Positions 189 to 50,116 of a DNA stretch of 56,003 nt are shown in pieces (position 1 is the stretch's first letter; every line of letters begins with the position of its first letter). The DNA comes from Pseudobacteriovorax antillogorgiicola. GTDB lineage: Bacteria > Bdellovibrionota_B > Oligoflexia > Oligoflexales > Oligoflexaceae. A program made the translations under genes and the position numbers. The notes under the pieces were generated by a model. The model saw only the letters and a list, made by a program, of their open reading frames with translations, had not been told where the DNA came from and did not search any database. The stretch covers positions 1-56,003 of the forward strand of contig NZ_FWZT01000034.1 of NCBI RefSeq assembly GCF_900177345.1. The letters are read 5' to 3'.

Positions 189-317
189 CTAGTGCCTAGT
201 CGATTTGAAGACTCGGCGTTGTTGAAATTGTCACACACTCGTCATCGTACCCAGCACGTACTGTTCCTCGCTCGCTCCTTGTCTCCTAGCCGAGAATTCA
301 ACTTGACTAGGCACTAG
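189..317. repeat. MITE/REP-like element, copy 1, with 13-bp terminal inverted repeats
   Basis: The element starts CTAGTGCCTAGTC and ends GACTAGGCACTAG, a perfect 13-bp terminal inverted repeat enclosing about 100 bp. Read on the minus strand, the interior closely resembles a second element at 6153-6264: both carry the TAGTCAAGTT end, a CGGCTAGG.GACAAGGAGC block, a GACGAG block and a CTTCAAATCGACTAGGCAC end. No coding sequence lies inside. Size and structure suit a non-autonomous miniature element or a large REP-type palindrome. It sits just upstream of the kinase gene. Confidence 0.85.
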
Positions 318-404: not shown

Positions 405-3299
405 GTGAATCCTAGTAGTCGGGGTACCGTCATTCGATACGTTCTGATCCTATGCTTTTACTGCCTGTGCTGCAAATTGCAGGCTTCGAGTTTTAGTCGG
501 CTTCCGTCTGAGTTGCTGATGCGTGCCTACGATTCCCCCACTCAGACGATCGAAGAGATGGAAGCAAAACTTCTGCTTACTACGGACCCTCAACGACGCC
601 TTGAGTTGCAAGCTGTTAGTGCTTTTGCTAGCTACATCCTCGGCATTCCTGAAGAGCTCTATCGATACCGAGAACCTGCATATGAAGAGGCTCTAGCCCA
701 TGGCAGAACCGACTTAGCAGTGATATTCTCATGCACTACCGGCTACGGCTACCAGCTTGAGCGAAAAATGGAAACCGCTAAAGGCTATATTGATCTCTGT
801 GAAAAACACGCCTATGAGGCTGAAGATAATTTTTTGCTCCCTTTTGCCCTTGAGAATAAGGCTTTTTACTATTTAGACAACGGCAAGTCCTCTCTAGCAC
901 TTTCAACAATCTTAAGTGCGGTGGAACATATTGGGCAAACCGACCTTTTTTTCTACTATCACATTCAAAATAGTAAAGCCGTCATGCTCGACACTCTAGG
1001 ATACTCGGATCAAGCCGTACCACTTCTACACGAAAGCTTAGACTTCTTCAAAAAGCAGGGTAGCCGATACTTTACATTTCTTGTTCGTTTCAATCTTTCT
1101 AAAGCCAAAGATCAAAGTAGAGACATTGAATCGCTGATTCAAAACTTTGAAGCGATGCTAAAAATCGAACTCGCAGAAGGGGACGATCGCTTGATGGCGT
1201 ACCCCTATCAAACTCTCGCGCAGCTTTATGTCGACGCAGGCCGCCTATCAGAAGCAATCAACATGGCGACGTTGTCTATTGGACATTTCAGAAAAAACCG
1301 AGAGCCTTCTATGGTCGCAGCAAGCCAAACTACCCTTATGGAAGCAAGACTCAAACAAGAAGAAACTGAAATGGCAGCTAGAATTCTGAAAACCATCGAC
1401 GTCGATGTTCTCAAAAACTACCTCTTGATAACGAATTACTACAAGGTTGCAGCAGAGGTCGAGAAAGCTTCAGGTAACCTAGAAAAAACTATAGACTACT
1501 ATAAGAAACTCGCTGAATACTCTGAAATTTCGCGTAAAAAGGACATGGAATCAGAAATAGCAAAGGTTAGAACTCAGCTCGACCTCCAAACAGAAACTCT
1601 TCGCACCCAACTAGCCCAAACCCAACTGAGTAATCAGAAAAATGCCTTTATTAGGAATCTTATCATTATCGTAGTCAGTTCGATTACTCTTATGATCGTT
1701 TACCTACTATACTTAAACCGCAAGAGCCAAAAGACCCTCGCTTTGATGGTTCAGGAACGCACTCGCGACATTCGAGCTATTCTCGATACTATCAATCAAG
1801 GGGTTGTGACCATCGAATCCCCTGAAAAACTTTCATTTGGAATTGAGCGATCCAAAGCTTTCCAAGAGTCCCTAGGCTTTCAATTTGAGACTATTCCTGA
1901 ATTGCTCAAACACAGTCAACTAAAGGCCGATGAGATCAATCAGGTGGTGGAGGCTTTACGAGCATCCATTGATCATGATGAGCTAGCTTTCGATTGCAAT
2001 GAGCACCTACTACCCCGGTCCTTGACGATCCAACATCAGGGCAAACTTATGGACTTGGAACTGGAATGGGTAAAAATGTATTCCCAAACGGGTGATAGTG
2101 TCGAGAAAATCTTGCTTAGCATCAAAGACCTCACTGAGATGCATGCTTTAGAATTGGAAAAAGAGCAGCAGAGATATGAGTCGGCATTGATCCATAGCAT
2201 AATAAAAATGGGCGATCGCTATTTTTCGACCCTCTTTCAAAAGATCTCGCTCTACATCACAGACAGTATCAAAACCTGTCTATTGCTTTCCCAGCAAACA
2301 CAAGACGATATGCAGCAAGGTTTGCGAGAAATCTTCTTAAACATTCACACCGCGAAGGGATTAGCTCGATCTGTGGGACTTGTCGAATTGTCTAGTCAGT
2401 GCCACGAGGCTGAAGAACAGCTAGACCTGCTCCTGAACCAAGAGACTAAAGACATTACTAACCTTCAAAGTAAGCTTTTAACCCTAGAACAAAGTCTTTC
2501 CGATCTACAAAGCTTCTGCGAGGCAAAACTTTCGTGGGATCTTACAGAGACAAAGATATCTTTCCCACGAGACACGATATTGGCTGGCTTACAGTTTTTG
2601 GAAAGCTACCTCGAAGAGCAAGGTGTGGTCAGCCGAAAAGTTCAATCTTTTTTAGCGACTTTAGAGCGATTCTCCCAATGTGAGCTTCGACAAATACTGT
2701 TGGGTTTTCAAGATGAGCTTGAGTCCCTGGCTAGAAAATTAAAAAAGGAAGTTCCACACCTCAAGTTTCTTGGTCCGCCTATCGCTTTTAATGAGCTTGG
2801 TGAAACCGTGATCCACTCTATATTCACTCATGTTTTCCGCAACGCCATGGATCATGGCATTGAAAGGCCTGCGATTCGTGAAAGCCAGGGTAAACCTCCT
2901 CGTGGAACCATCACAATCGACTGCCGGATCCGACTAGATATTTTATACATCGATATTTCAGACGATGGCTATGGACTACAAGTTAAGCAGATTGAGGAAA
3001 TTGCCCGGCAACGAAACCTTATCAATGAAAAACGCAAATACGCTGAGAAAGATATTGTGCAATTAATTTTTGAGGCAGGATTTAGCTCTCGTGATGAAAT
3101 CACAAGTATTTCAGGACGAGGAGTCGGCATGGCAGCCATTAGATCTTATTTGAATGAGCAGGGGGGAAGTGCATTGATTATTCTCGGTGAGAGCCAATCG
3201 GGTGACCAGTATCGGCCTTTCACTTTGCAGCTGCAGATACCTCGGGAGTTGTGGTGGGAATCTTTCCAAACAACTCAACAGCTGCAAATGCCCGCTTAG
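405..3299 (+). CDS. Periplasmic-TPR, CheA-like HPt/ATPase membrane sensor kinase
   Basis: Predicted inner-membrane signalling protein of 964 residues. A hydrophobic signal segment (residues 8-27) precedes a helical TPR-like sensor region (about 50-380). Then come a coiled coil, one membrane span (about 417-437) and a cytoplasmic part. That part has a PAS-like region (455-580), an HPt domain with phospho-acceptor His648 in an HTAKG motif, and a HATPase_c domain: N box around 808-820 (FRNAMDHG), G1 at 852-858 (SDDGYGL), G2 at 903-907 (GRGVG). The HPt-plus-ATPase arrangement is CheA-like, but the protein ends after the ATPase, so there is no CheW-like coupling domain and no receiver. It should pass phosphate to a separate receiver protein. 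The start is GTG with a weak ribosome site. The gene converges on the deacetylase-like gene with 15 bp between stops. Confidence 0.85.
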   Translation: MNPSSRGTVIRYVLILCFYCLCCKLQASSFSRLPSELLMRAYDSPTQTIEEMEAKLLLTTDPQRRLELQAVSAFASYILGIPEELYRYREPAYEEALAHGRTDLAVIFSCTTGYGYQLERKMETAKGYIDLCEKHAYEAEDNFLLPFALENKAFYYLDNGKSSLALSTILSAVEHIGQTDLFFYYHIQNSKAVMLDTLGYSDQAVPLLHESLDFFKKQGSRYFTFLVRFNLSKAKDQSRDIESLIQNFEAMLKIELAEGDDRLMAYPYQTLAQLYVDAGRLSEAINMATLSIGHFRKNREPSMVAASQTTLMEARLKQEETEMAARILKTIDVDVLKNYLLITNYYKVAAEVEKASGNLEKTIDYYKKLAEYSEISRKKDMESEIAKVRTQLDLQTETLRTQLAQTQLSNQKNAFIRNLIIIVVSSITLMIVYLLYLNRKSQKTLALMVQERTRDIRAILDTINQGVVTIESPEKLSFGIERSKAFQESLGFQFETIPELLKHSQLKADEINQVVEALRASIDHDELAFDCNEHLLPRSLTIQHQGKLMDLELEWVKMYSQTGDSVEKILLSIKDLTEMHALELEKEQQRYESALIHSIIKMGDRYFSTLFQKISLYITDSIKTCLLLSQQTQDDMQQGLREIFLNIHTAKGLARSVGLVELSSQCHEAEEQLDLLLNQETKDITNLQSKLLTLEQSLSDLQSFCEAKLSWDLTETKISFPRDTILAGLQFLESYLEEQGVVSRKVQSFLATLERFSQCELRQILLGFQDELESLARKLKKEVPHLKFLGPPIAFNELGETVIHSIFTHVFRNAMDHGIERPAIRESQGKPPRGTITIDCRIRLDILYIDISDDGYGLQVKQIEEIARQRNLINEKRKYAEKDIVQLIFEAGFSSRDEITSISGRGVGMAAIRSYLNEQGGSALIILGESQSGDQYRPFTLQLQIPRELWWESFQTTQQLQMPA

Positions 3300-6152: not shown

Positions 6153-6264
6153 CTAGTGCCTAGTCAAGTTAAATTATCGGCTAGGCGACAAGGAGCTAGC
6201 TGGTACGGTGACGAGCGAGTGACAAAGTTAACAACATCGAGGCTTCAAATCGACTAGGCACTCG
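6153..6264. repeat. MITE/REP-like element, copy 2, inverted relative to copy 1
   Basis: The element starts CTAGTGCCTAGTC and ends GACTAGGCACTCG, a terminal inverted repeat with one mismatch. It is about 112 bp against 129 bp for copy 1, so one copy carries an internal indel near the middle. It lies between the convergent CBS gene and the gene at 6316-7107, where its palindromic ends could also act as a transcription barrier. Confidence 0.85.
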
Positions 6265-6315: not shown

Positions 6316-7107
6316 CTAAAAACTTGCTCCAGTGCTAACCGCAACGAAGTAGGCAAGCTCATTTGAAAATTCCAAATCAGATATATTTGTCCAAGCAAGC
6401 CCTACTTTTGGACTAATGTAGTAACCATCCTTAAGGTTAATTGGCAGTGCAGCAGCCAATTGAACATCGTAGTCCTTATCTTGATTCACGTTTTGATCAT
6501 CGTAGGATTTGTACCCAGCTGAAAGCAACATGTCTAAATTCTGCCCTTTTTCAACAACGAAGCTTTTACCGATGGAGCCACCCCAATAAAGGTAGCTGTA
6601 TTGCTTAATTTCTTCCTGCTGACCGCGGAAATAGCTGAGACCTATAGAGTAGTCAAAGTAATTAGAATCAGTAAGAAAAACTGACGGCTCAAGATATATC
6701 GGAGTAGAAACTCCTGCCTCATCTTCTTCAGCCAATGGATAAGAGTATACTGAAAACCCTAGGTTCAATTGAGTGTTAGAGTCAATCACTAAACTATGAT
6801 TCAAAATCAAATCCTGCTCCGCACCAACACCTCCTTTGACATTCCTAGATACGCTTTTTCCATTCGTCTGATAGGCACTAAAAAAAGTAATGCTTGTTCG
6901 GTTGTTTGGGAGATTCCATATTATGGTTGGAGCTACCATGGCATTTTGGTCTCGTTGTCTAGAATCTTGAAATAGATTATACCCCCTAAAAATGTAGGAA
7001 GAAGAGCTGGTTAGATCGATGGAAAGACCAATCGGCTCTTGAGCTCCTTGGGCATTCAAAGCTAGTATTCCGCAAAAATAAGTGGTCAGGCAGGTGCGTA
7101 GAATCAA
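6316..7107 (-). CDS. Gcw_chp/TorF-type outer-membrane beta-barrel protein
   Basis: The protein has 263 residues with an N-terminal signal peptide (cleavage likely after LNAQGA). Near residues 30-45 it has SSSSYIFRGYNLFQDSRQ, the hallmark start of the TIGR02001/Gcw_chp (TorF) family. The rest alternates polar and hydrophobic residues as in an outer-membrane barrel, ending in Phe as barrel proteins often do. The TTG start sits 8 bases after GAGGAG. The gene lies 26 bp downstream of the DMT transporter gene on the same strand, so it is probably the third gene of the acyltransferase operon and may give the exported product a route across the outer membrane. That role is inference; the family has no firmly established function. 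Confidence 0.75.
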   Translation of the reverse strand: MILRTCLTTYFCGILALNAQGAQEPIGLSIDLTSSSSYIFRGYNLFQDSRQRDQNAMVAPTIIWNLPNNRTSITFFSAYQTNGKSVSRNVKGGVGAEQDLILNHSLVIDSNTQLNLGFSVYSYPLAEEDEAGVSTPIYLEPSVFLTDSNYFDYSIGLSYFRGQQEEIKQYSYLYWGGSIGKSFVVEKGQNLDMLLSAGYKSYDDQNVNQDKDYDVQLAAALPINLKDGYYISPKVGLAWTNISDLEFSNELAYFVAVSTGASF

Positions 7108-7133
7108 TTAATAATCTCCTCGTGTCTAAAAAT

Positions 7134-8063
7134 TTATATGTTCTTAGCAGATAACTTCGTCGTTACATTTTTTTTCATGCAACTCGATGCTAATTCTTGC
7201 AAGTTACTTTCGCGAATGAGCCGAGGGGCGAGAGATACAGCTAATAGAATGATGAAAGCCCCAAGAATTTCGATAAAAATTGGCTGTTCCTTAAAGATCA
7301 TTAGCGCAAGAAGGACAGCAAGGGGCGTATCGAGAATCATGATGAATCCAAGGGTAGACGCCTTAACTTGTTGTTGAACTCTGTTTTGTAGCCAATATAC
7401 AAAGAAAGTGAGTATGGACCAGATAACGATATATCCTATGAATTTTGAATCCAAGTTCTTGACGGCAACATGATTTGAATAGTCGAATAGAAACATGACT
7501 AAGGAGAAAAAAAACCAGAAACTGGCTTGCCAAGAAAGTAAAAACGAAGGCTTGATTTGTCTGCTATATTTCTCAATCGACACGGTATAGAAACCATACA
7601 GCAAAGCGCTTCCCAATGCACAAAGATCACCATAATTGAAGTAATCTAACTCGAATCGAGCCAAGCATAGAGCACCTAATAAGGACAGACCGTAGACATA
7701 TACAAGGGAGACACTAAACCTGGACCCCATTACTATTTTTATAATAGGAATAAAAAAACAATAGAAGGTACCGTAAAAAACTGCTTTCATAACCGTAGTG
7801 CTTGTGACCGCAATACATGAAAGAAGTAGGCTACCATATAGCAGCATACTGCTTAATAATACCGGTATAAAGTATTTAGTAGGCGGAAAAACTCTCCTTG
7901 AAAGAAAAAACAGCGGGAGACAAAGCACAAAGATCATTGTATATCGAATTGAGTTAGCCACTAGAGGAGTGGCTGACTCACTACCCAGTTTAGCGAGAAT
8001 TATGGAAAATGCCCAAGTTAATGGAATCAACAATGCAGCAATACTAGATTTAGCCATGGTCAT
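7134..8063 (-). CDS. EamA/DMT-family inner-membrane transporter
   Basis: The 309-residue protein has about ten hydrophobic segments in two similar halves, the usual EamA (drug/metabolite transporter) size and layout. Family exporters carry amino acids, nucleosides and other small metabolites; the substrate cannot be read from the sequence. I start it at ATG 8063 (MTMAKSS; a second ATG lies two codons later), which overlaps the 3' end of the acyltransferase gene and suggests translational coupling. A longer open frame reaches back to 8225 but lies inside the acyltransferase gene. Context suggests it exports the product of that enzyme or imports a related metabolite. Confidence 0.85.
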   Translation of the reverse strand: MTMAKSSIAALLIPLTWAFSIILAKLGSESATPLVANSIRYTMIFVLCLPLFFLSRRVFPPTKYFIPVLLSSMLLYGSLLLSCIAVTSTTVMKAVFYGTFYCFFIPIIKIVMGSRFSVSLVYVYGLSLLGALCLARFELDYFNYGDLCALGSALLYGFYTVSIEKYSRQIKPSFLLSWQASFWFFFSLVMFLFDYSNHVAVKNLDSKFIGYIVIWSILTFFVYWLQNRVQQQVKASTLGFIMILDTPLAVLLALMIFKEQPIFIEILGAFIILLAVSLAPRLIRESNLQELASSCMKKNVTTKLSAKNI

Positions 8064-9714
8064 TGTGCCTATCTTTAATAAAACTAGAAATTTCCTCCCA
8101 GTTAGCGTGAAGAGTTTCCTTGATGCAACTGAAATATCGCGTCCACGATCCTTGCACCTTAACTTCAATCTGAAGTTTCTCACCATTAATCCCATAGCTC
8201 GCCAGTAGCTTATCACCGCTATCATTCATTGTAGCTAAAGCAATCCCGCCCCCGAAACCAGGGTTAGAGGTAGCCAGCTCTGGGTATAAGAGGCTTTCAA
8301 GTACCCTAAGGTCTCGGTTGACCTTACACTTGTAGAAAGTAAAAAATGATCTGGGTGCGAGCAAACCTTCATGTCCCTTTTTACACCTAATAACTTTTAG
8401 TTTATGGCTATCTGAAGCAGCCTGAAGACGCTGCAATATCCCAGATGCAAGTTGTTTTTGATTAGAACTTTCTATAAATTCACTCCAAGCAATTGCGAAT
8501 TCTTTACTATGTTGACTTAAAGTATTGATAGTTTCGTAGCGACCGCCTTTCGTATGACGCATGTGAATAGCTTCACTTGCTGATACCATTCTACCTGAAC
8601 AACGTAATGCTACTGTTTGCAATAAGAGCTGCAAGACAGCATCTGGAAGGATCTTCAGTCTTTGGCACAAATTTGTATCTATCGTACTGTCAAAGAAAAA
8701 GGAATGTTTCATAGCCTCTTTCGCATCGGTCTCTTTTCTCTGCACCAGTCTCACAAACTCATCAGGAACATCGATCCAATGCAAAGGCGATACGCGTTTT
8801 ATTTCAGCGTTATCAACCTCTACTTGCAATGACCTTCGATAGACTTCTCTCGCAAACTGATTAATATGATGTCCGTCAGCAAATGAGTGCTCGTATGACA
8901 ATCCAGCATCACCACTGGCAAAGCATATAAGCTGCATACTCTTATCGAAGTACCTATTTTTATAGGTATCTCTTACACACTTAACAAAATCATGAGTATT
9001 TACTATTTTGTTATTATCAAGACATAGAACAAATAATGAATTGCTAATTTCCTTAAAATTAATGCTATTTATAAAGTGTGAGTTAGATATTTTTTCTTTC
9101 CAGTACGCCCATCGAGGACGTTCCAAAATCGTTCCCAAGCCAACATAACATTCTGGAGACTGGCATTCCATGACGCCTAGTAGATAAGACATTACGTCGC
9201 CTGGATCAACGGAAAGGGGGATCTTAAAAAAGTTGCCCCGGTACATAGCCATAAAGTGAGAGTAGTATTCAGTTTTTTTATGCAGATCTTTAGATACTCC
9301 TGGAGCACGTTCAGAACCCAAGATCCTAAGAAATGGAGTCGAGTCCAGCTTTATATTTCTCTCTTCACAAGTCGATATCTGTTCCATGCTTCGGTATAAT
9401 TCATAGGTCGCCACACAAAGCTTCACCGCTCTCTCTAATTGTACAGATGTTGCTGGGTCCGCTTCAAAGTATCGCTGGCAATTTACAGCAATACCCAAAG
9501 AATCGGGGCATTCTAAATAGGCCTGGATCATGGCCTTGTCTTGCCAAGTGTCACAGTTGTATCGCGACTTAAACTCACACCAGCATTGACTCATCTCAGT
9601 TGTTATGGATTGCCAATCTTCAGGTAGATCAATATTACTTGCTTCAAATGCGCGCTGATACTGCACTATAACTTCATCAAGTGTAGGTAAGTCCCGAATA
9701 ATCGGTTCGCTCAT
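8050..9714 (-). CDS. Choline/carnitine O-acyltransferase family protein
   Basis: The 554-residue protein is a divergent member of the family that includes choline acetyltransferase (ChAT) and carnitine acetyltransferase (CrAT). Visible landmarks are NRYFDKSMQ (253-261; NRWFDKTLQ in CrAT), the catalytic motif YEHSFADG with His276, LKILPDAVLQLLLQ (354-367; family KLSPDAF.QVALQ), SASEAIHMRHTKGGR (378-392) and YETINTLS (393-400). Carnitine enzymes have an Arg in a D-R-H motif that binds the carnitine carboxylate, and ChAT has Asn there. The best-matching site here is D435-S436-H437, so Ser. The preceding YET is closer to the carnitine-type TET than to the ChAT-type VDN. The two CoA-phosphate Lys of CrAT and the STS motif are not evident. 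Start ATG 9714 follows GGAG by 8 bases. Overlap with the DMT gene and a divergent CHT-like gene suggest work on choline or a similar amine. Confidence 0.82.
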   Translation of the reverse strand: MSEPIIRDLPTLDEVIVQYQRAFEASNIDLPEDWQSITTEMSQCWCEFKSRYNCDTWQDKAMIQAYLECPDSLGIAVNCQRYFEADPATSVQLERAVKLCVATYELYRSMEQISTCEERNIKLDSTPFLRILGSERAPGVSKDLHKKTEYYSHFMAMYRGNFFKIPLSVDPGDVMSYLLGVMECQSPECYVGLGTILERPRWAYWKEKISNSHFINSINFKEISNSLFVLCLDNNKIVNTHDFVKCVRDTYKNRYFDKSMQLICFASGDAGLSYEHSFADGHHINQFAREVYRRSLQVEVDNAEIKRVSPLHWIDVPDEFVRLVQRKETDAKEAMKHSFFFDSTIDTNLCQRLKILPDAVLQLLLQTVALRCSGRMVSASEAIHMRHTKGGRYETINTLSQHSKEFAIAWSEFIESSNQKQLASGILQRLQAASDSHKLKVIRCKKGHEGLLAPRSFFTFYKCKVNRDLRVLESLLYPELATSNPGFGGGIALATMNDSGDKLLASYGINGEKLQIEVKVQGSWTRYFSCIKETLHANWEEISSFIKDRHNDHG

Positions 9715-9927
9715 GTTCTTACTCCAATGAGACAATGAAAGTTTCGGGAAATTCTCACAAGCCAAATTACTTTGTCAACTAGCAACTACACTCAGAATCA
9801 GGAAAGAAATCTTTACCTAAAAGAATCTAGATATTTTTCTCTTTTTCTAATATCTAAGCAGCTCCGCATTCAAAATAAATCTAATTTTTCGAGCCTCAGG
9901 AGTATGGCTCAGTGGGAAGGGAATCTA
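9715..9927. promoter_or_regulatory. Divergent intergenic region between the acyltransferase and the choline-type transporter
   Basis: This 213-bp AT-rich gap separates two divergent starts, so promoters for both directions should lie here and the two transcription units may be co-regulated. I see no convincing -35/-10 pair or operator palindrome by eye. The transporter ribosome site GGGAAGGG lies near its right end. Confidence 0.5.
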
Positions 9928-11436
9928 ATGACATCAGCATACATCATCGGAACTATCGTGTTCTACCTAGTCACATTTTTGTTAGGTTATTGGGTTGCAA
10001 ATAAAAAAGATAGTTCTAAAAGTGCCGAAACCATGTTCGTTGGAAATAGAAAAATTCCTTTGTTTGTCGGAGTCTTTACAATGACTGCGACTTGGGTTGG
10101 GGGTGGATATATTAACGGTACAGCGGAAGCTAGTTTCGGATCTGGCCTGCTATGGACTCAAGCTCCATGGGGTTATGCATGCTCATTGCTTTTAGGAGGT
10201 CTCTTTTTCGCTAAGAAGATGCGAGAAGAAAATTATGTGACAATGCTCGATCCGTTCGAGAAAAAATATGGTGCGAAGGTTTCTGGGCTCCTATTCATTC
10301 CTGCTCTTATCGGTGAGGTTTTCTGGTCCGCTGCGATTCTTACTGCCCTTGGCTACACTTTTAGTACGATTCTTGAGATCCCTTTTAGTGTAGCTATCCT
10401 AACTTCAGCAGCCATAGCTATTAGTTATACTTTATTAGGCGGTTTGTGGTCTGTTGCAGCTACTGATGTTGCACAATTAGTTTTTATAGGATTGGGTCTA
10501 GGCCTAGCTGTACCAGCTCTAATCAATGCAGCCGGCGGTTGGGATACTATGTGGAGTTCTTACCAAAGCGCTTTTGGCTATGCAGCAAAACTATTTCCAG
10601 ATAAAGACGCGTTGAAAGCCGCTGACTTCTCGTTATCAACATGGCTAGACTTTGGACTTCTATTGGTCTTTGGTGGAATTCCGTGGGGAGTATATTTCCA
10701 AAGAGTCTTATCAGCCAGAAGCCCTCAAGCTGCTAAAAACCTCTCTATCCTGGCAGCTGTTGGGTGCATCCTCCTTGCAATTCCCCCCATGATTATAGGA
10801 ATGGCAGCCAAACTAACAGACTGGAATAGTCTTATTGGCTTTACTCCCGAAAGCGCAATGATTCTACCGGCTGTTCTCAAGTATCTTGTACCACCTGTAG
10901 TCAGCGTTTTGGGTCTATCTGCAGTTGCTGCTGCTGTCATGTCTTCGATTGATTCTTCAATCCTATCAGCCTCATCAATGTTTGTGTGGAACGTCTACAG
11001 GCCGATCAGAGGTCATAGTGAAAAGAAACTGCTTCTGGCGTCCAAACTCACTATCCTAATTATTGGCTGTATCGCAACTGCGCTAGCTCTTTCGGTAAGA
11101 AGTGTCTATGACCTTTGGTTTTTCTGTTCAGATTTAGTTTACGTTATTCTATTCCCTCAGCTTTTGATGGTTATCTATTTCAAACAAGTCAATGTAAAAG
11201 GGGCTGTTGCTGGACTGATTTTAGGTTTTTGCCTTAGATTAACTGGCGGATTCAGCTTACTTGGTATTCCAAGTTTGAGCTTCTGGCTCGACAGTTCTGG
11301 CAACTTAGCATATCCTATGCGAACGATAGCCATGCTAGCCACCCTACTGTCGATTATACTTGTGTCACTAGCGACTAGGAGCAACGCTGGGGAAAAGTCC
11401 AAGGCCAATAGACTTGCGACAAGTTATCGAGGCTAA
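9928..11436 (+). CDS. CHT1-like sodium:choline symporter (SSS family)
   Basis: The 502-residue protein has about 13 membrane segments and belongs to the sodium/solute symporter family. It is unusually close to the animal high-affinity choline transporter CHT1 (SLC5A7). Shared blocks include FTMTATWVGGGYINGTAEA (50-68), QAPWGY, LLLGGLFFAKKMR, YVTMLDPF, GLLFIPALIGEVFW, GGIPWGVYFQRVLSA, DSSILSASSMF and SDLVYVILFPQLL. The aromatic residues that I recall forming the CHT1 choline site have equivalents here: Trp56, Tyr83, Trp133 and Trp253. It should import choline or a close analogue with Na+. The start is ATG 9928 after GGGAAGGG; the frame is open further upstream, but the family homology begins here. 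It is divergent from the acyltransferase operon. Confidence 0.9.
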   Translation: MTSAYIIGTIVFYLVTFLLGYWVANKKDSSKSAETMFVGNRKIPLFVGVFTMTATWVGGGYINGTAEASFGSGLLWTQAPWGYACSLLLGGLFFAKKMREENYVTMLDPFEKKYGAKVSGLLFIPALIGEVFWSAAILTALGYTFSTILEIPFSVAILTSAAIAISYTLLGGLWSVAATDVAQLVFIGLGLGLAVPALINAAGGWDTMWSSYQSAFGYAAKLFPDKDALKAADFSLSTWLDFGLLLVFGGIPWGVYFQRVLSARSPQAAKNLSILAAVGCILLAIPPMIIGMAAKLTDWNSLIGFTPESAMILPAVLKYLVPPVVSVLGLSAVAAAVMSSIDSSILSASSMFVWNVYRPIRGHSEKKLLLASKLTILIIGCIATALALSVRSVYDLWFFCSDLVYVILFPQLLMVIYFKQVNVKGAVAGLILGFCLRLTGGFSLLGIPSLSFWLDSSGNLAYPMRTIAMLATLLSIILVSLATRSNAGEKSKANRLATSYRG

Positions 11437-11642: not shown

Positions 11643-12524
11643 TCAGTTTCTCATGAAACGGTGAGACACCCTAGCGTCGTCTAAGGACAAGTATGGGGTT
11701 AACGCCTCAACAAAGTTTCGAAGAACGGGGTGTTCCAATGTGCTGATACGATGAGAATTCTCACTCGGCAGAAATCGCTTCGGGGAACTCAGAAAAAATC
11801 TTACACGATCTATGGGATGTTTTATTCCTAGCGATCGTGTTGATCTGATCCACGCTCGCAATGGGAGAGGATGTTCATGGATAGGATCGATTACAAGGAA
11901 ACCTAATTCGACGGTAGGGATCATCACCGCGACATGAAAGTTCCAATGTTGTGTAGCGTAATATAGATCACCGACGGCAAATACTTTTACAATGTGATCC
12001 TGTGAAACACCTAGACCTCTTAAATAGTGATGAACTAGAAAGGCCCTTAAAAAACAAAATCCAATCTCATTACCACGATCAAACGACGATACTCGGTGAG
12101 GACTTGCTATCGGGTGGTTCAGCATAATGCCCTGCACTGCTTGAGCCTTATCGTAATAATCATAGATTTCAAAAAGGTCGACGCGGTTTGCCGACTGACT
12201 TACCCGTAATAATTTCTGATTTAGTAAATTCATCTCTTCATGAAAAAACGTATTCTTGGCTAAAGCTTGCTTTCGCTTATTGCTGTACCTTTTTCTAAGA
12301 TCACTTAGCTGCCACCTTTGATTAATAGTGCGCAATTCACTTTGATATTGCTTCCCAAGATCTTCATATTTCCCTTTATCCATAAGGTAATTTATTCCGA
12401 ACAATGGTTCTAATTGATCTTGGTTTAAGCGATTAACAACGTCCTGTAAGTCTCGGCCAAAGCTTTTACCACTTAAGAAAAAAATAACAGTAACCACCGC
12501 CATCTTAAGTTTACTTAATCTCAC
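11643..12524 (-). CDS. Secreted protein-glutaminase-like papain-fold enzyme
   Basis: The protein has 293 residues with an N-terminal signal peptide (KMAVVTVIFFLSGKSFG). The C-terminal half has the order Cys-His-Asp expected of protein glutaminase/transglutaminase-like folds: GFCFLRAFLVHHYL (Cys near residue 165), then WNFHVAVMI (His near 203), then VIDPIHEHPL (Asp near 220). Protein glutaminases deamidate Gln side chains; related folds cross-link or hydrolyse. The N-terminal helical stretch may be a pro-region. The GTG at 12524 lies five bases after GGAAGG; a GTG at 12530 is too close to that site. Function is inferred from motif order only. Confidence 0.62.
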   Translation of the reverse strand: MRLSKLKMAVVTVIFFLSGKSFGRDLQDVVNRLNQDQLEPLFGINYLMDKGKYEDLGKQYQSELRTINQRWQLSDLRKRYSNKRKQALAKNTFFHEEMNLLNQKLLRVSQSANRVDLFEIYDYYDKAQAVQGIMLNHPIASPHRVSSFDRGNEIGFCFLRAFLVHHYLRGLGVSQDHIVKVFAVGDLYYATQHWNFHVAVMIPTVELGFLVIDPIHEHPLPLRAWIRSTRSLGIKHPIDRVRFFLSSPKRFLPSENSHRISTLEHPVLRNFVEALTPYLSLDDARVSHRFMRN

Positions 12525-12623
12525 AAGCACCTTCCATCATAAAAATTAGAAACCAATACTAGAGACCACATCTCATAAAGAGACCTATCACTTTAAAAGT
12601 TTCGTCGATAGTCATAACTTCAT

Positions 12624-38315: not shown

Positions 38316-38987
38316 ATGAACTGGTTAGAGAAAATAGATTCGTACTGTGAGCGGTTAGATCCTAGCTTTTGGGCGGAACCCGTGAACTTTCTATCCAACT
38401 TGTCCTTCATAGTTGGTGGGTTATGGATTTTTCATGAAGCTAGAAAGCGCCAGATTCCATGGCATTGGACTTGGGTTACGGCTGCGGTGTTGGATATTTC
38501 CGTAGGAATTTGTTCGGGTTTGTTTCATAGCCTTGCAAACCGATGGTCAGGTGCCGCTGATGTCATATCTATTTTGATCTTTGTGGTATTCGCAAAGGCT
38601 GTTTGGATTCTAAGGATCGCCCAAAAAAGCCGTCTGTGGGCTGCTGGCTTTTTCCTAGCGTTGGGTTTATCCACGGCTTTATTTGTAAGTGTTCTTAAAG
38701 GGCTCCCTCTCAACGGTTCTCACGGTTATATGGGAATTCTATTTTCTTTGCTATTCCTAGGCTACCTTGATCGTCTTCAGGAGACATCTAAGCCATACAT
38801 ATGGTATGCAGCACTGGTTTTTCCGGTGTCACTGTTCTTTAGGACAGTTGATACGATCGTTTGTGAGTATTTTACTCTAGGCACCCACTTTATATGGCAT
38901 CTCTTAAATGGCTTAGTACTCTTTCTTGTTCTAAAAAGCCTCTTGAATCATACTAATAAATACATGGTTATGGTTAGTAATAGATAG
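38316..38987 (+). CDS. Ceramidase-like (CREST-superfamily) membrane protein
   Basis: The 223-residue inner-membrane protein has about seven spans. EPVNFLSNLSFIVGG (21-35), GICSGLFHSLANRWSGAADVISI (about 66-88) and GTHFIWHLLNGLVLF (near 190) carry the conserved Glu, Ser-x-x-x-His, Asp and His-x-x-x-His residues of alkaline-ceramidase/CREST hydrolases, which bind a catalytic zinc. It may hydrolyse an amide lipid or act as a lipid sensor. ATG 38316 follows GGGAGAGG. The 3' end overlaps the relic ORF on the other strand. Confidence 0.78.
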   Translation: MNWLEKIDSYCERLDPSFWAEPVNFLSNLSFIVGGLWIFHEARKRQIPWHWTWVTAAVLDISVGICSGLFHSLANRWSGAADVISILIFVVFAKAVWILRIAQKSRLWAAGFFLALGLSTALFVSVLKGLPLNGSHGYMGILFSLLFLGYLDRLQETSKPYIWYAALVFPVSLFFRTVDTIVCEYFTLGTHFIWHLLNGLVLFLVLKSLLNHTNKYMVMVSNR

Positions 38988-40897: not shown

Positions 40898-42166
40898 TTA
40901 ACCTACAATCGACAAAAAGCTCTGATCCCCATCCAAGGAACGAAATCTCTGTTCACCGAGGGCGTGATTCAAAATGGTCCCAGCTCGCCAAGCCATTAAA
41001 CTCACTTGAGGCTCGGAAATTCCCACACAGTGGCGGCCAAGATTAAGCCCATAAAGGGAGGAGTCCGACTCTGAAGCACTGCGAATCTGAAAGTTCTCGT
41101 CAATATCAATGCGCCCATAGCTATCCTTGACCGCATCACCAATCAAGGCCTCAGCAAAATCAGGGAGAGCTTGCCGAAAGCCAGTTGCGAAGATCACCAC
41201 ATCAGCCTCATAGCTTTCGGTCTGTTCTGTGTGTCGATTACTGATCTCTAAGCGGTAGCAATCACTGCTCTTCGATAATTTTCGAAAATCTCGATTGGGA
41301 TAGAGATGAACATGACCTTCCCTGCCGTGAAGATATCTTTGGTCATATAACTCTTGATAGAGCTCCTCCAAATATGCTGGAGTGATACCATCACTAGCAA
41401 GTTTCTGATAATCGACAATAGCCCCCTTGCGACGTTTTGGTAACTTTGCAAACTCCTTGACGTAATGAGGGATAAAATACTCATTGACGAAGGGGCTTTC
41501 ATCCAGAGGCTCTAAATTATCACGTCTTGAGAAAACGTTAATTGCTTTCGCTTGACCCCACTGACCACGGAGGCCATTGAGGAGAATTTCAATTCCAGTT
41601 TGCCCGCCACCGACGATAGCAAGCCGCTTGCCTTCCAAGTCCATTGCTTTCAGATGCGGAGATCTCGCGAAAAAGCAATCAGACCCAAGAAAAGCCTGTG
41701 CTTCCGCAGGAATGTTCGGCTGAAGCCCAGTGCCTAAACAGAGTTTTTTGGTATGATAAATATTGTCTTCAGTTCTCACGACAAAGCCATCGTCAACTTT
41801 TTGAACACCAAGCACGTGACTATTGAATTTGGTGTTACTTAGACGGTCTGCTACCCAACGACAGTAGTGTTCGAACTCAATCCGTTTGATCGTTGAACGG
41901 CTGGTATTCAAGAAAGCATAAAACTTTTTATTCTCGACGAGGTAGTTTAGGAAGCTATTGGGATTGGTTGGATCGACCGGAGTCACGAGATCCTTCAACC
42001 AAGAGGTCTGCATAAAAGCATCTTCAAACATAAGGTCTGGATGCCAAGAAAATGAGTCCTTGCTGTCGAGAAATAAGGTTTTATAGTGGGGAACCTGGCT
42101 TGCAAGGGCTGCGATACTCAAATTAAATGGCCCAATGCCAATGCCTAAAAATTCATATCTTTCCAT
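40898..42166 (-). CDS. iucD: L-lysine N6-monooxygenase of siderophore synthesis
   Basis: The 422-residue flavoprotein hydroxylates the side-chain amine of lysine, the first step of aerobactin synthesis. It has the FAD site GIGIGPFNLSIAAL (7-20), the FSWHPDLMFEDAFMQTSWLKDLVTP block shared by lysine/ornithine hydroxylases, the NADPH site IVGGGQTGIEIL (about 184-195) and late FATGFRQ. An ornithine or cadaverine substrate is not excluded by sequence. It is the last gene of the operon, three bases after iucC, with GGGGAG before ATG 42166. Confidence 0.88.
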   Translation of the reverse strand: MERYEFLGIGIGPFNLSIAALASQVPHYKTLFLDSKDSFSWHPDLMFEDAFMQTSWLKDLVTPVDPTNPNSFLNYLVENKKFYAFLNTSRSTIKRIEFEHYCRWVADRLSNTKFNSHVLGVQKVDDGFVVRTEDNIYHTKKLCLGTGLQPNIPAEAQAFLGSDCFFARSPHLKAMDLEGKRLAIVGGGQTGIEILLNGLRGQWGQAKAINVFSRRDNLEPLDESPFVNEYFIPHYVKEFAKLPKRRKGAIVDYQKLASDGITPAYLEELYQELYDQRYLHGREGHVHLYPNRDFRKLSKSSDCYRLEISNRHTEQTESYEADVVIFATGFRQALPDFAEALIGDAVKDSYGRIDIDENFQIRSASESDSSLYGLNLGRHCVGISEPQVSLMAWRAGTILNHALGEQRFRSLDGDQSFLSIVG

Positions 42167-42169
42167 TGT

Positions 42170-43918
42170 TCACTCCCCACCTAGTGGATTAGCTAGATCA
42201 TCACCAAGGGCTGGAACTGGTCGCTCTTGAAGATCTCCATACCCTAATTTAAATTTTACTTTGTTTACTAAGACTCGCTCAATTTTTGGGCGAAGCAAGT
42301 CCATTCTTTTAATTCTTTCTGGATACGAATGCCCTGCCACATAGTTTCTCACGACATCTGCCAATATTTTGTAGAATCTTCCTTCTGCAAAACCGATATC
42401 TCTCTTTAAATCCAAGGAAAGAAATCGTAGGACAGAGATAAAGTGGCCCGTGATTAGGTCATGAATTAAATATTCTGGAGGAAGCCTGGTAACAGTTGAC
42501 TTGATAGTCCCACTGACTCTATCCAACTCTGGGATCTCATCCTGAATAAACCGTAAATCACCCTGCAAATCCTTCAGCAAGAGCCGATGAGGTCGATTCT
42601 CCTTAAGCACTAAAATCGTATTTTGGCCGTGAGCTACAAGACCAACGCCATAGCTTACCTGGAGGTGATACAAGGGAAGAACCACAACCTCAAAATACAA
42701 TCGCATCCATTCAGCGGGGCTCAAGCCGGACGATTCAATGAGATGGCTGCCGAGACACTGGCGATCATCGCGAATATGAGATAGGCAGGCGGTGAGAATC
42801 GCCTCCTCATCATCATCGATAGTACTAGCGACGCTATCTCTCCAGATACAACCCAGTTGCTCTTTAAGCCGGTAGGCTCCATCTGGTAGAGTTTCGTATT
42901 GCGGGTGTTGAAAGGAACAAGCCGCTGGTTCTTTTAAAACAGCGACACGCCCCCTGAGTAAGGAATCCGAGTCTACGACAGATTGTAGCCATTGAGATAG
43001 TTCGGGTGCTATATCAATATATTTCGCCGGGATTCCCCGATAGCAAGACGTATTCATAATCGATAGAGCTAGTTTGATATCTGGGCACTCAGGGCGCGTG
43101 ATATTGGACACCGTTCGTATGGACACTTGTGGTCGATAGTCATCTCCAAATACCCCTAATGGGAAAACTTGCCCTTCCCAAATCCAGTCAATGAGTTCTG
43201 TCTGAAGAACATTTTGCCATTGCCATGGATGAACAGGTAGAAAGAAAAACTCTTCGCTACTCAAAGTCTTTTCCCGACAAACTTGATGAAAGCGCTGTGC
43301 TTCCTCATGATCCATACTGCTAGAGATCACTTTGTCCTGACTCCAGCAAGGACTCATATGAGACTTGATCAAATCATGACTCACGGCAATCCAAAACAGT
43401 TGAAAGCAAGGGTTGAATTCAGGTGCATATAAGCTCAGATCTGCCGGTTCCCAGCCTATCCTGCCTTTATTGACTAGAAGTTTCGGATGGCCATTGATCC
43501 GATTCTGACTCGCGAGATGATCTAGATCGAAGTGATCCTTGCCGCCAGCTTTGCGATCTTGAAGCAGTTTAAGATCAGAATAGAGATTGAGTTTTAGTTC
43601 TGAAATAAAATTACTTAAATTGATATCTGAGATATCGCATTCCCTTTGGCAGTCTATAAAAAATTGAGCTGCATTGATGTCGCGCCGCCATTGACCATCA
43701 GCGAAGCGCTCTAAGCTTTCAGGCTCTACTACAAAGAAGTCCCAAATGCCCTGCTCTGAGTTGAAGCGATAGTGAACTCCAGAAGACAGTTCTAAGACCC
43801 GACTGTCTTGCCCGGCTTTTTTGTCCCTTGGTCGAGCTACCAGGACCTGCTCGAAACACAACTCTCCAATGGCCTTGGCAACAAGTTCACGATTTACAAG
43901 ATCGAATTCGTGTCTCAC
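42170..43918 (-). CDS. iucC: NIS siderophore synthetase, IucC-type
   Basis: The 582-residue enzyme uses ATP to form an amide between a citrate carboxylate and an amine. Family landmarks are FLPVHPWQWQNVLQ, SIRTVSNIT, LALSIMNTSCYRGIP and AHGQNTILV. By position between iucB and iucD it corresponds to IucC, which adds the second N6-acetyl-N6-hydroxylysine to citryl-lysine. GTG 43918 lies eight bases after GGAG and overlaps the iucB stop as GTGA; a GTG six bases earlier is too close to that site. Confidence 0.88.
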   Translation of the reverse strand: MRHEFDLVNRELVAKAIGELCFEQVLVARPRDKKAGQDSRVLELSSGVHYRFNSEQGIWDFFVVEPESLERFADGQWRRDINAAQFFIDCQRECDISDINLSNFISELKLNLYSDLKLLQDRKAGGKDHFDLDHLASQNRINGHPKLLVNKGRIGWEPADLSLYAPEFNPCFQLFWIAVSHDLIKSHMSPCWSQDKVISSSMDHEEAQRFHQVCREKTLSSEEFFFLPVHPWQWQNVLQTELIDWIWEGQVFPLGVFGDDYRPQVSIRTVSNITRPECPDIKLALSIMNTSCYRGIPAKYIDIAPELSQWLQSVVDSDSLLRGRVAVLKEPAACSFQHPQYETLPDGAYRLKEQLGCIWRDSVASTIDDDEEAILTACLSHIRDDRQCLGSHLIESSGLSPAEWMRLYFEVVVLPLYHLQVSYGVGLVAHGQNTILVLKENRPHRLLLKDLQGDLRFIQDEIPELDRVSGTIKSTVTRLPPEYLIHDLITGHFISVLRFLSLDLKRDIGFAEGRFYKILADVVRNYVAGHSYPERIKRMDLLRPKIERVLVNKVKFKLGYGDLQERPVPALGDDLANPLGGE

Positions 43919-44916
43919 GTCCACGTCTCCTGGCTAAAGAACTTCTGCCTTGTGGCTTCTAGCAAAGCAGCTCGCTTATGAGGAAAATCGAACTCATAAT
44001 GTGACTGCCAGTAGCCGAGCGACTCTACATAACGCAGCATTCTCTTATTATCGGCCCGAGGTTCTCCCATGAGCCGACGGCATCGTGCTTCATCGAGAAA
44101 TGTAAAATGAGTCAACGATTCAAGAACCGCCATAGTGTTTTCTGTGCCAAGGCAATCCTCATTGCCAATCAGCAGATGGATTCCACGATCGTAGGCTTCA
44201 CACCAGTCATAGTAAGGCGCCAATCGATCTTCTGAAACCCAGTAGAACTCTAGATACCCTGCCGGCACATCATCAAACGACAGCAATACAGGATCAGTGC
44301 GCGGGTCTTCACGGAGTGAATTGATGTAAGCTTTTAGTTCGTCTTTTGTTTTATCGAGTTCCCAAAACTTAGCCACCCGATCTTGATGATGCCATTCGTA
44401 GAAGACATCCAAGTGCTTTTCCGGGGAAAGGGTCTGAAAGCTGATCGTCTTTGCAATCTTTGGCATGTATCGTCGGTAGAGTTCTCCGTCTCCGACCCTA
44501 GGTCTTTCGGGGTGACTACCATGAGGCCCTTCTACCCACGATTCGGGTCGAACACTGTAGCGACCGCGATGATGCCAAAGGTAGGGGTTCTGCATAAATT
44601 CGTGTTTATAACAAACTAGGCGGCTTCCCTCTCGAAAATACTCCATCGACCCTATCAAAACGCTTTTGAAATCATGGTGTAGCTCAATGCTTCCCACATC
44701 ATTGAAGTGGCCGAAAAGATGCTCCATGGCTGTTAAAACTACCACCTTAGGCATCTCAGCTTCCGGCGAGCCGATCCGAATCACCTGATTCTCTAAAGTA
44801 TAGCTAAGGACAAACCTGTGACCACCACAAGACGCCGTTAATACAGGGCCATCAAGGTAGACGTGGACGTGCTGGTTTTCAAATAAGTTTCGATAGGCAA
44901 CCGTTTGTTGGCTCAT
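43915..44916 (-). CDS. iucB: N6-hydroxylysine O-acetyltransferase-like (GNAT) protein
   Basis: The 333-residue protein acetylates the hydroxylamine made by IucD. Its C-terminal GNAT domain matches E. coli IucB closely: GELYRRYMPKIAKTISF, DRVAKFWE, AGYLEFYWVSEDRLAPYYDW, YDRGIHLLIG, RADNKRMLRYVESLGY and EFDFPHKRAAL. The first 130 residues are variable, as in IucB. Its ATG overlaps the iucA stop by four bases (ATGA), showing translational coupling. Confidence 0.9.
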   Translation of the reverse strand: MSQQTVAYRNLFENQHVHVYLDGPVLTASCGGHRFVLSYTLENQVIRIGSPEAEMPKVVVLTAMEHLFGHFNDVGSIELHHDFKSVLIGSMEYFREGSRLVCYKHEFMQNPYLWHHRGRYSVRPESWVEGPHGSHPERPRVGDGELYRRYMPKIAKTISFQTLSPEKHLDVFYEWHHQDRVAKFWELDKTKDELKAYINSLREDPRTDPVLLSFDDVPAGYLEFYWVSEDRLAPYYDWCEAYDRGIHLLIGNEDCLGTENTMAVLESLTHFTFLDEARCRRLMGEPRADNKRMLRYVESLGYWQSHYEFDFPHKRAALLEATRQKFFSQETWT

Positions 44917-46691
44917 TTTTGAACTCCCAATTGATAGATAGGGTTAGGAATGGCTTGATATATAGCCAGTGGGTTCTCCAAGGTATTCTCGTTAAATTGC
45001 TCTACAGTACAGATGAAATTACCCTTGTTCAGTAGCTCAGCTGAATCAATCAGATAATCAAGACAGGAGCTATCCTGTACCCCTCTTTCGCGCAATTCTA
45101 AAAGATAGTCCCGCAGCTGTTGAATCAGCGGCTCTTCACCGAGACCGCAATCCACTCCAAGTCGATTTATCACAGCAAAACTAGCATTGATCATGAGGTA
45201 GTAGCTAAGTAGAATATTTCCTTCATTGTTCTGTAGGATATTACCGTTTTCAATATCAAGACTTTTGATCGTCGGACTCAGCAGGTCATAGCCAAGTTTG
45301 CTATAGCCGGTTCCTTGGCAATCTCGAAAGTATAGCTTCTCAGGGATTCCAGTAGGATCGATTTTAACCACAATATTCTGTTGGTGAGCACCCATCAAAA
45401 TGCCGAAATCTGCTTGTGCCATCAGTAACGGCTGAACGACCACATCAAGATAGTGAGCGAACCATTCTTGAGCGGCAGACTGTAATGTTAAACTACGAGA
45501 CTTGCTCAAACGATCAATCATTCGCTTAAGAAGAGAGCCTTTTTCATCGCTGTCTGCTTGGGTCAGAGCACCAAGCACGAAGCACCGCTCATCAGAGCCT
45601 TCTGAGAAGGGATTATAGCGAACAGATAGAATGGTGTCTGGGATCAAGTCGCCATTGTGATCTTTTATAGCCAAATAACAGGGTTCTCCCATGACACTAG
45701 CCGCCGGATATTCCGATAACCACTTTTTTCCAACGTCCGATTGCAGAACATCGTCAACCTGAAGTCCCCGATCAACCTCGTGCTCGTATAGCTTTCGAAC
45801 TGAGTTTGTCAGCATGATATTAAGAGAATACTTTAGCATGTACTTATGCTTCGGATTATATAGCGTTCGCACGGAACTGGTTGGAAACCACGGAGAATCA
45901 GTTTCACCAATCTCCCGAATAAGGCCATCATCGACATACGAAGCAATGTCTACCTGTTTTTTGATTGCTTGCCACTGCCATGGGTGAAACGGCAGCAGAG
46001 AAAAGTTAGGATCTCGTTTTTCAAGGATTGTTTCACCACTTGCCCCTTCGGAAGCTAGCATGTGAACCAACCACTCATGATCACTGAAGCTTTTAGAAGT
46101 CTTTCGAACAAGAATCGACGGATGGACCTCAAGCCATAACAAGGCGAACTTCCCATTCAACTCGGGGCTGTAGAGCGCAAGCTCATGGTCTTCCCAACCC
46201 TCTCGGCTTTTGGGGGCAGGATGAAAGTTATGGCCCATCCATAGGGATTGTTCTCCCTGAACAAAATTTTCTGGTTTCATTTCAAGGTTGCCACATGTTT
46301 CTTGCTGCTCCCGCAGTGCGAGAAACATAATGCGATTGCTATTTTCTATCCTTGCTAGCAGTTCTTCTCGGTCTCTTTCAGCCAATGGCTTAGACCAAGG
46401 GGCATATCGTAGGATTTGATCCATGAGTTCTAAAGCAGACAAGGCTCTTAAGACTTTGCCTTTCTTGAGAACATATTCACCTTGATACTGGAACAGCCCT
46501 AGTTGTGAGTGATGGCTCAGGGGCAGAACTGCCTGTACATCCGGCGCTAAATCAATTAGCACAGCCTCTTTTTCTTGCCAGATCCCTACTGACCATCCAC
46601 GATACTCTCGCAAAAGGGAGTTTATGAAACAGGTAAGTCCAGCCTTTGATGCAAGGTCGTTTAAGTATTTATGAGATGTCGGGGAGTTCAT
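44913..46691 (-). CDS. iucA: NIS siderophore synthetase, IucA-type
   Basis: The 592-residue enzyme is an IucA/IucC-family synthetase, near the normal length. It has LLPFHPWQWQAIKKQ, SSVRTLYNP, MLKYSLNIMLTNSVRKL and GAHQQNIVVK, the ATP- and citrate-binding signature blocks. Order in the operon makes it IucA, which couples the first acyl-hydroxylysine to citrate. I start at ATG 46691 (MNSPTSHKY) directly after GGAGCGGAGC; the frame is open back to 46748. It overlaps the MFS gene by 23 bp. Confidence 0.88.
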   Translation of the reverse strand: MNSPTSHKYLNDLASKAGLTCFINSLLREYRGWSVGIWQEKEAVLIDLAPDVQAVLPLSHHSQLGLFQYQGEYVLKKGKVLRALSALELMDQILRYAPWSKPLAERDREELLARIENSNRIMFLALREQQETCGNLEMKPENFVQGEQSLWMGHNFHPAPKSREGWEDHELALYSPELNGKFALLWLEVHPSILVRKTSKSFSDHEWLVHMLASEGASGETILEKRDPNFSLLPFHPWQWQAIKKQVDIASYVDDGLIREIGETDSPWFPTSSVRTLYNPKHKYMLKYSLNIMLTNSVRKLYEHEVDRGLQVDDVLQSDVGKKWLSEYPAASVMGEPCYLAIKDHNGDLIPDTILSVRYNPFSEGSDERCFVLGALTQADSDEKGSLLKRMIDRLSKSRSLTLQSAAQEWFAHYLDVVVQPLLMAQADFGILMGAHQQNIVVKIDPTGIPEKLYFRDCQGTGYSKLGYDLLSPTIKSLDIENGNILQNNEGNILLSYYLMINASFAVINRLGVDCGLGEEPLIQQLRDYLLELRERGVQDSSCLDYLIDSAELLNKGNFICTVEQFNENTLENPLAIYQAIPNPIYQLGVQK

Positions 46692-47850: not shown

Positions 47851-47862
47851 GATGATCTTACC

Positions 47863-50115: not shown

Positions 50116-50116
50116 T

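What the first reader, a model, noticed from the sequence alone, without database searches (positions are those of the whole stretch)
6316..11436. Bacterial choline-type uptake, acyl-transfer and export locus resembling the animal cholinergic gene pair
A ChAT/CrAT-family acyltransferase gene overlaps a DMT exporter gene, is followed by a Gcw_chp/TorF-type outer-membrane protein gene, and is divergent from a transporter very close to CHT1. In animals ChAT and CHT1 together make acetylcholine at nerve endings. Seen: motifs, overlap and divergent layout. Known: the CHT1 and ChAT families. Inferred: a system that imports choline (or a similar amine), acylates it and sends the ester out through two membranes, as a signal, osmolyte or modified head group.
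Basis: partly seen in the sequence, partly recalled or inferred. Interest (0 to 1): 0.9.

Follow-up and report, generated by a model that had tools for sequence, protein, structure and literature searches.

The report
Bacterial choline importer beside unusual acyltransferase
A bacterium carries a choline importer closely related to the one in animal nerve endings, back to back with a gene trio for making and possibly exporting an ester, but the ester-making enzyme is not the animal acetylcholine enzyme, the pairing was not found in any other genome searched, and what it esterifies is unknown.

Summary
The four genes are real. The transporter is a true member of the CHT (SLC5A7) family: about 52% identical to human CHT1 over the shared region, with every choline- and sodium-site residue that was checked conserved, and its nearest solved structure is a bacterial Na+/choline transporter. 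The acyltransferase is a genuine PF00755 protein with its catalytic histidine, but it falls outside the eukaryotic ChAT/CrAT/CPT2 group. It carries neither the ChAT (GRVDN) nor the carnitine (GRTDT) acceptor signature, but GRYET. The EamA exporter is sound. The long gene overlap is probably only 8-14 bases. The outer-membrane protein looks like a beta-barrel but matches no Gcw_chp/TorF model.

In 383 genomes, CHT occurs in 5 and PF00755 in 8, and only this genome has both. No neighbourhood is shared elsewhere. So the animal-like pair looks like a one-off juxtaposition of two separate lineages, not a conserved cholinergic module.

Choline import is well supported. Acylation of choline is possible but unproven (about 0.3), and export is inference. 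It is worth an assay because the acetylcholine-making enzymes of bacteria are still reported as unknown.

The parts
9928..11436 (+). CHT-family Na+/choline symporter, 502 aa (the ORF opens at TTG 9772; ATG 9928 with GGAAGGG upstream preferred)
   Evidence: SSF E 2e-37; 456 bits to bacterial sfCHT 9rws, 424 to human CHT1; about 52% identity to human CHT1; W62, G64-G66, Y67, Y91, W141, W254, W406, D188, D349, S350 and sfCHT Q303/R304/S307 equivalents conserved
8050..9714 (-). PF00755-type acyl-CoA O-acyltransferase, 554 aa, acceptor unknown (ORF opens at TTG 9765; ATG 9714 with GGAGT upstream preferred)
   Evidence: PF00755 E 2e-57; EHSFADG catalytic His and ATS motif kept; acceptor motif GRYET, neither ChAT GRVDN nor CrAT GRTDT; outside the ChAT/CrAT/CPT2 group
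7134..8063 (-). EamA/DMT-type inner-membrane transporter, 309 aa, likely start ATG 8063 (or 8057), overlapping the acyltransferase stop by 14 (or 8) bases
   Evidence: EamA E 3e-20, two repeats; TIGR00950 match below its cut-off; 9 hydrophobic segments by a simple window
6316..7107 (-). Probable outer-membrane beta-barrel protein, 263 aa, 26 bp after the EamA stop
   Evidence: Signal-like N-terminus and C-terminal Phe; weak sub-threshold DUF2715/TDE1717 matches, no Gcw_chp; no homologue in 57 other genomes of the phylum
9715..9927 (.). 213-bp divergent intergenic region; promoter-like site TTGACA-16-GAGAAT with TG at 9778-9751 (-) ahead of the acyltransferase
   Evidence: promoter-like sites in the region do not exceed chance (10 found, 12.9 expected), so weak evidence

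Best explanation
A CHT-type Na+/choline symporter lies back to back with a predicted three-gene operon: acyltransferase, EamA exporter, outer-membrane beta-barrel. The symporter brings choline into the cell (strongly supported by homology and conserved site residues). The operon makes an O-acyl ester from acyl-CoA and a small alcohol in the cytosol, and the EamA protein and the outer-membrane protein move it out (inferred from gene order and families). The acyltransferase is a bacterial side-branch of PF00755 with a remodelled acceptor pocket, so it is neither ChAT nor a carnitine enzyme. Choline is the single likeliest acceptor because of the neighbour (about 0.3), but another small alcohol is as likely or likelier. 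The likeness to the animal ChAT/CHT1 pair is a juxtaposition in this lineage, not shared descent of the pair.
For: CHT; sfCHT is an experimentally shown Na+/choline transporter (PMC13220886). Acyltransferase family and catalytic His. Not ChAT or carnitine enzyme: tree; acceptor motif GRYET, with Tyr where CrAT has Thr465 and ChAT Val459. Operon: 8-14 bp overlap and 26 bp gap on one strand. The four genes are all among the seven lowest-GC3 genes of 42 in the window (0.37-0.39 against mean 0.45, sd 0.04), which suggests a shared history. No canonical choline dehydrogenase, betaine aldehyde dehydrogenase or choline kinase above cut-off in the genome, so a non-standard use of choline is possible.
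Against: The PF00755 relatives in three genomes of the same order have no CHT gene, and the four other CHT genomes have no PF00755 gene. No neighbourhood is shared. Divergent genes need not share a function. The shared low GC3 also extends to the next gene, 11643-12530. Export by EamA and the barrel protein rests on family and order only.
Confidence: 0.6

Rival explanations
1. Unrelated neighbours. The CHT protein supplies choline for ordinary use (glycine betaine osmoprotection or catabolism), and the acyltransferase operon makes and exports something that has nothing to do with choline.
For: CHT and PF00755 each occur without the other in every other genome searched. The Priestia megaterium plasmid CHT homologue lies next to betB and an iron-containing alcohol dehydrogenase. 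Relatives of the acyltransferase in other genomes have unrelated neighbours.
Against: Divergent start-to-start layout and shared low GC3. No above-cut-off BetA, BADH or choline kinase in this genome, although sub-cut-off dehydrogenases could serve.
Confidence: 0.45
2. A bacterial cholinergic module: choline in through CHT, acetyl- or acylcholine made by the acyltransferase, ester out through EamA and the barrel protein.
For: CHT family and intact choline site. PF00755 enzyme with catalytic His. Carnitine-carboxylate pocket apparently lost (Thr465 to Tyr; Arg518 not seen in register), as a choline enzyme would also need. Exporter genes alongside.
Against: ChAT acceptor residues absent (V459 to Tyr, N461 to Thr; N514 not seen); outside the ChAT clade. 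The same GRY motif occurs in relatives whose genomes lack CHT. No recurrence of the pair.
Confidence: 0.2
3. The acyltransferase is a carnitine-type enzyme for carnitine or another imported betaine alcohol, and the CHT-like protein carries that compound.
For: Best single-sequence PDB hit is CPT2. An Arg lies a few residues from the Arg518 position and could be in register with a small gap.
Against: Arg518 is Leu in the three nearest relatives, and in the window Leu or Ala by the alignments made here. CrAT Tyr452 and Thr465 are replaced by Ser and Tyr. The transporter's choline site is fully conserved.
Confidence: 0.08

Closest known systems
sfCHT, bacterial Na+/choline transporter (PDB 9rws, PMC13220886), and human CHT1/SLC5A7
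   Same: Same family: 47% identity to sfCHT and about 52% to human CHT1; choline, Na+ and gating residues conserved
   Different: No transport data for this protein; different genomic setting
Choline O-acetyltransferase (ChAT)
   Same: Same Pfam family, catalytic His in EHS..DG, overall fold by model and profile
   Different: About 19% identity in the profile alignment; GRYET in place of GRVDN; no Asn514 match; falls outside ChAT+CrAT
Carnitine acyltransferases (CrAT, CPT2, CROT)
   Same: Same Pfam family; best single-sequence PDB hit is CPT2, E 7e-17
   Different: Thr465 replaced by Tyr, Tyr452 by Ser, Arg518 not found in register; outside the eukaryotic clade
Unnamed PF00755 proteins in three genomes of the same order (L004/L009, L005/L010, L006)
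   Same: Share E-A-[VI]-H-M-R-H-T..GRY and D/EHSF.DGH motifs; nearest branch (84/93)
   Different: Only 23-24% identity, different neighbours, no CHT gene in those genomes
Choline-to-glycine-betaine loci with a CHT-like carrier (Priestia megaterium plasmid)
   Same: CHT-like carrier beside genes of choline use
   Different: Partners there are betB and an alcohol dehydrogenase, not an acyltransferase

Membership tests
CHT / SLC5A7 choline transporters | Sequence closer to CHT than to other SSF carriers | tested here: met
   456 and 424 bits to sfCHT and CHT1, under 60 bits to SGLT-type; own SSF paralogue only 24%
CHT / SLC5A7 choline transporters | Aromatic choline cage, Cl- loop VGGGY, Na+ residues | tested here: met
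   W62, VGGGY, Y91, W141, W254, W406, D188, D349, S350 all conserved (residues from PMC11589582)
CHT / SLC5A7 choline transporters | Na+-dependent choline uptake blocked by hemicholinium-3 | not testable with these tools
   needs a transport assay
Choline/carnitine acyltransferase family (PF00755) | Profile match over the curated cut-off | tested here: met
   195 bits against 22.3
Choline/carnitine acyltransferase family (PF00755) | Catalytic His in [ED]H[SA]..[DE]G | tested here: met
   EHSFADG
Choline O-acetyltransferase | Choline-type acceptor residues V459/N461/N514 (positions from own knowledge of ChAT/CrAT engineering work) | tested here: not met
   Y and T at the V459 and N461 positions; no Asn at the N514 position
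Choline O-acetyltransferase | Groups with ChAT in a tree | tested here: not met
   ChAT pairs with CrAT 100/99; eukaryotic set separated 99/98
Carnitine acyltransferases | Thr465 and Arg518 of the carboxylate site (positions from own knowledge) | tested here: not met
   Thr465 is Tyr, firmly aligned. Arg518 is Leu or Ala by MAFFT, but the profile alignment stops just before it, so that part is less firm
Gcw_chp / TorF-type outer-membrane proteins | Match to the family model | tested here: not met
   no hit in Pfam or NCBIfam at E<=10
EamA / DMT exporters | Two EamA repeats, 9-10 membrane helices | tested here: met
   two stretches, 73 bits; 9 hydrophobic segments
EamA / DMT exporters | Exports the ester made next door | not testable with these tools
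   needs a transport or secretion assay

The most novel reading that the evidence does not exclude
A bacterial cholinergic module: choline is imported by a CHT-type carrier, converted to acetyl- or acylcholine by a PF00755 enzyme that evolved choline use independently of animal ChAT, and secreted through EamA and an outer-membrane channel. It would be a first identified gene for bacterial acylcholine synthesis.
Probability: 0.15. Interest if true: 0.85.

Novelty: new variant of a known kind. Interest (0 to 1): 0.42.

Why it matters
Acetylcholine and its synthesis have been reported in bacteria and archaea for decades, yet a 2024 review says the enzymes remain unknown (PMC11050324). This locus offers a concrete candidate: a choline carrier with an intact choline site beside a PF00755 enzyme that has apparently lost the carnitine-carboxylate site. 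If choline is accepted, it would be an independent origin of acylcholine synthesis. If not, the enzyme still represents a little-studied bacterial branch of the choline/carnitine acyltransferase family with an unknown acceptor.

Tried and rejected
Recurrence of the pair: not found in 58 genomes of the phylum, 383 sampled genomes or the genome-contig scan. The genome-contig scan uses two short peptide patterns and finds only near relatives, so it is not exhaustive. Plasmids: no relative of the acyltransferase. Viral contigs: none. Gcw_chp/TorF label for the outer-membrane protein: rejected for lack of any profile match. Structure of the outer-membrane protein: single-sequence model useless, pLDDT 30. 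Structure of the acyltransferase: four-sequence model weak, pLDDT 54, usable only to show that all 16 significant PDB matches are PF00755 enzymes. Synteny with the nearest large-genome relative: uninformative, because the flanking kinase is a many-copy family and nothing else matched. Canonical choline oxidation or phosphorylation genes in the genome: none above cut-off. Literature on bacterial PF00755 enzymes: nothing directly relevant found. For ChAT, two query stretches recalled from memory served only as bait; the letters used for the alignment are those printed by the PDB search, and that chain is an engineered ChAT with a few surface changes.

Full report
What is there. The window is one whole contig of a 7.28-Mb bacterial genome. 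Those starts come from ATG codons with good ribosome-binding sequences for the acyltransferase (GGAGT) and the transporter (GGAAGGG), and from the family's usual N-terminus for EamA. They shrink the acyltransferase/EamA overlap from 176 to 14 (or 8) bases, the usual spacing of translationally coupled genes, and leave 213 bp between the divergent starts. A promoter-like site lies ahead of the acyltransferase, but such sites are no commoner here than in shuffled sequence.

Transporter. Its best solved relatives are the bacterial Na+/choline transporter sfCHT (456 bits) and human CHT1 (424 bits); sugar carriers of the same superfamily score under 60 bits. sfCHT has been shown to carry choline with Na+ and to be blocked by hemicholinium-3 (PMC13220886). 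Identity is 47% to sfCHT and about 52% to human CHT1 over the shared region. Every residue of the choline cage, the chloride loop and the sodium sites checked is conserved, as are the gate residues Q303, R304 and S307 of sfCHT. In a small tree human CHT1 sits among the bacterial proteins without strong resolution, so the closeness to the animal protein is a property of the whole bacterial CHT group, not of this gene. Choline (or a near analogue) as substrate is the best-founded claim here, though untested.

Acyltransferase. The family assignment is solid: PF00755 E 2e-57; profile-profile probability 99.9% to ChAT+CrAT; and all 16 significant matches of a low-confidence model are PF00755 enzymes. 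The catalytic His (EHSFADG) and most of the STS motif (ATS) are kept. But it is neither ChAT nor a carnitine enzyme. In the tree ChAT and CrAT are sisters (100/99), and ChAT, CrAT and CPT2 are set apart from all bacterial proteins (99/98); the window protein joins three proteins of its own order with moderate support (84/93) and a long branch. The acceptor segment reads GRYET, against GRVDN in ChAT and GRTDT in CrAT. The position of CrAT Arg518 / ChAT Asn514 holds Leu in the three relatives, and Leu or Ala in the window protein by the alignments made; the profile alignment ends just before it, so this last point is less firm. A Tyr in place of Thr465 and loss of Arg518 would remove the carboxylate pocket, which argues against carnitine but does not by itself argue for choline. 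The role of these residues is from general knowledge of the family, not tested here.

Rest of the operon. EamA is certain as a family; its substrate is not. The outer-membrane protein ends in Phe and has a signal-like N-terminus, but no Gcw_chp or TorF model matches it at any threshold tried, no homologue was found in 57 other genomes of the phylum, and its model is useless.

Does the pair recur? PF00755 occurs in 8 and CHT in 5 of the same 383 genomes, and only this genome has both. Within the phylum, apart from this genome, CHT lies in one family of the order and PF00755 in another. Neighbourhoods fetched around the other CHT and PF00755 genes share none of the four genes beyond the query itself. 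A scan of genome contigs of about 85,000 species with two peptide patterns found only three PF00755 relatives, none beside a CHT gene. A Priestia plasmid CHT homologue sits beside betB and an alcohol dehydrogenase, an ordinary choline-use setting. In the window's own genome no BetA, betaine aldehyde dehydrogenase or choline kinase passes its cut-off, so the fate of choline here is open.

A hint of unity. The four genes are all among the seven lowest-GC3 genes of 42 in the window (0.37-0.39 against a mean of 0.45, sd 0.04). This fits a block with its own history, though the next gene (11643-12530) shares the bias.

Verdict. Shown: the families, the layout, the intact choline site, the non-ChAT non-carnitine acceptor motif, and the lack of recurrence in what was searched. 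Inferred: choline import, an active acyltransferase, operon, export. Unknown: the acceptor. The locus is worth an enzyme assay because the acetylcholine-making enzymes of bacteria are still reported as unknown (PMC11050324).

Noticed in passing
window 191-315 and 6155-6262: Two copies in opposite orientation of a roughly 110-bp element with terminal inverted repeats AGTGCCTAGTC...GACTAGGCACT, resembling a MITE or REP-type repeat; 4 end matches found where 0.16 are expected. One copy lies just beyond the outer-membrane protein gene.
   Followed up: partly
L022:8346-10157 and L023 (G273, G131): A PF00755-like gene; in L022 it lacks the catalytic His and lies between NRPS/PKS megasynthase genes. 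Possibly a natural-product release partner, or a degenerate enzyme.
   Followed up: partly
L011:8986-10758: A PF00755 relative in a Chromatiaceae MAG with Arg in place of the catalytic His (FERAAVDG).
   Followed up: no
window 40898-51421: An NRPS-independent siderophore cluster on the minus strand: Lys/Orn monooxygenase, two IucA/IucC synthetases, GNAT acetyltransferase, MFS-like protein, TonB-dependent receptor.
   Followed up: partly
window 38316-38987: A ceramidase-family (PF05875) membrane protein in a bacterium, just over the curated cut-off.
   Followed up: no
window 11643-12530: A secreted-looking protein with a weak match to Gln_deamidase_2 (PF18626, below cut-off), sharing the low GC3 of the focal genes.
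   Followed up: no
window 405-3299: An Hpt/HATPase sensor kinase with about 40 relatives in this genome and about 60 in the nearest large-genome relative, a large kinase expansion in this family.
   Followed up: no
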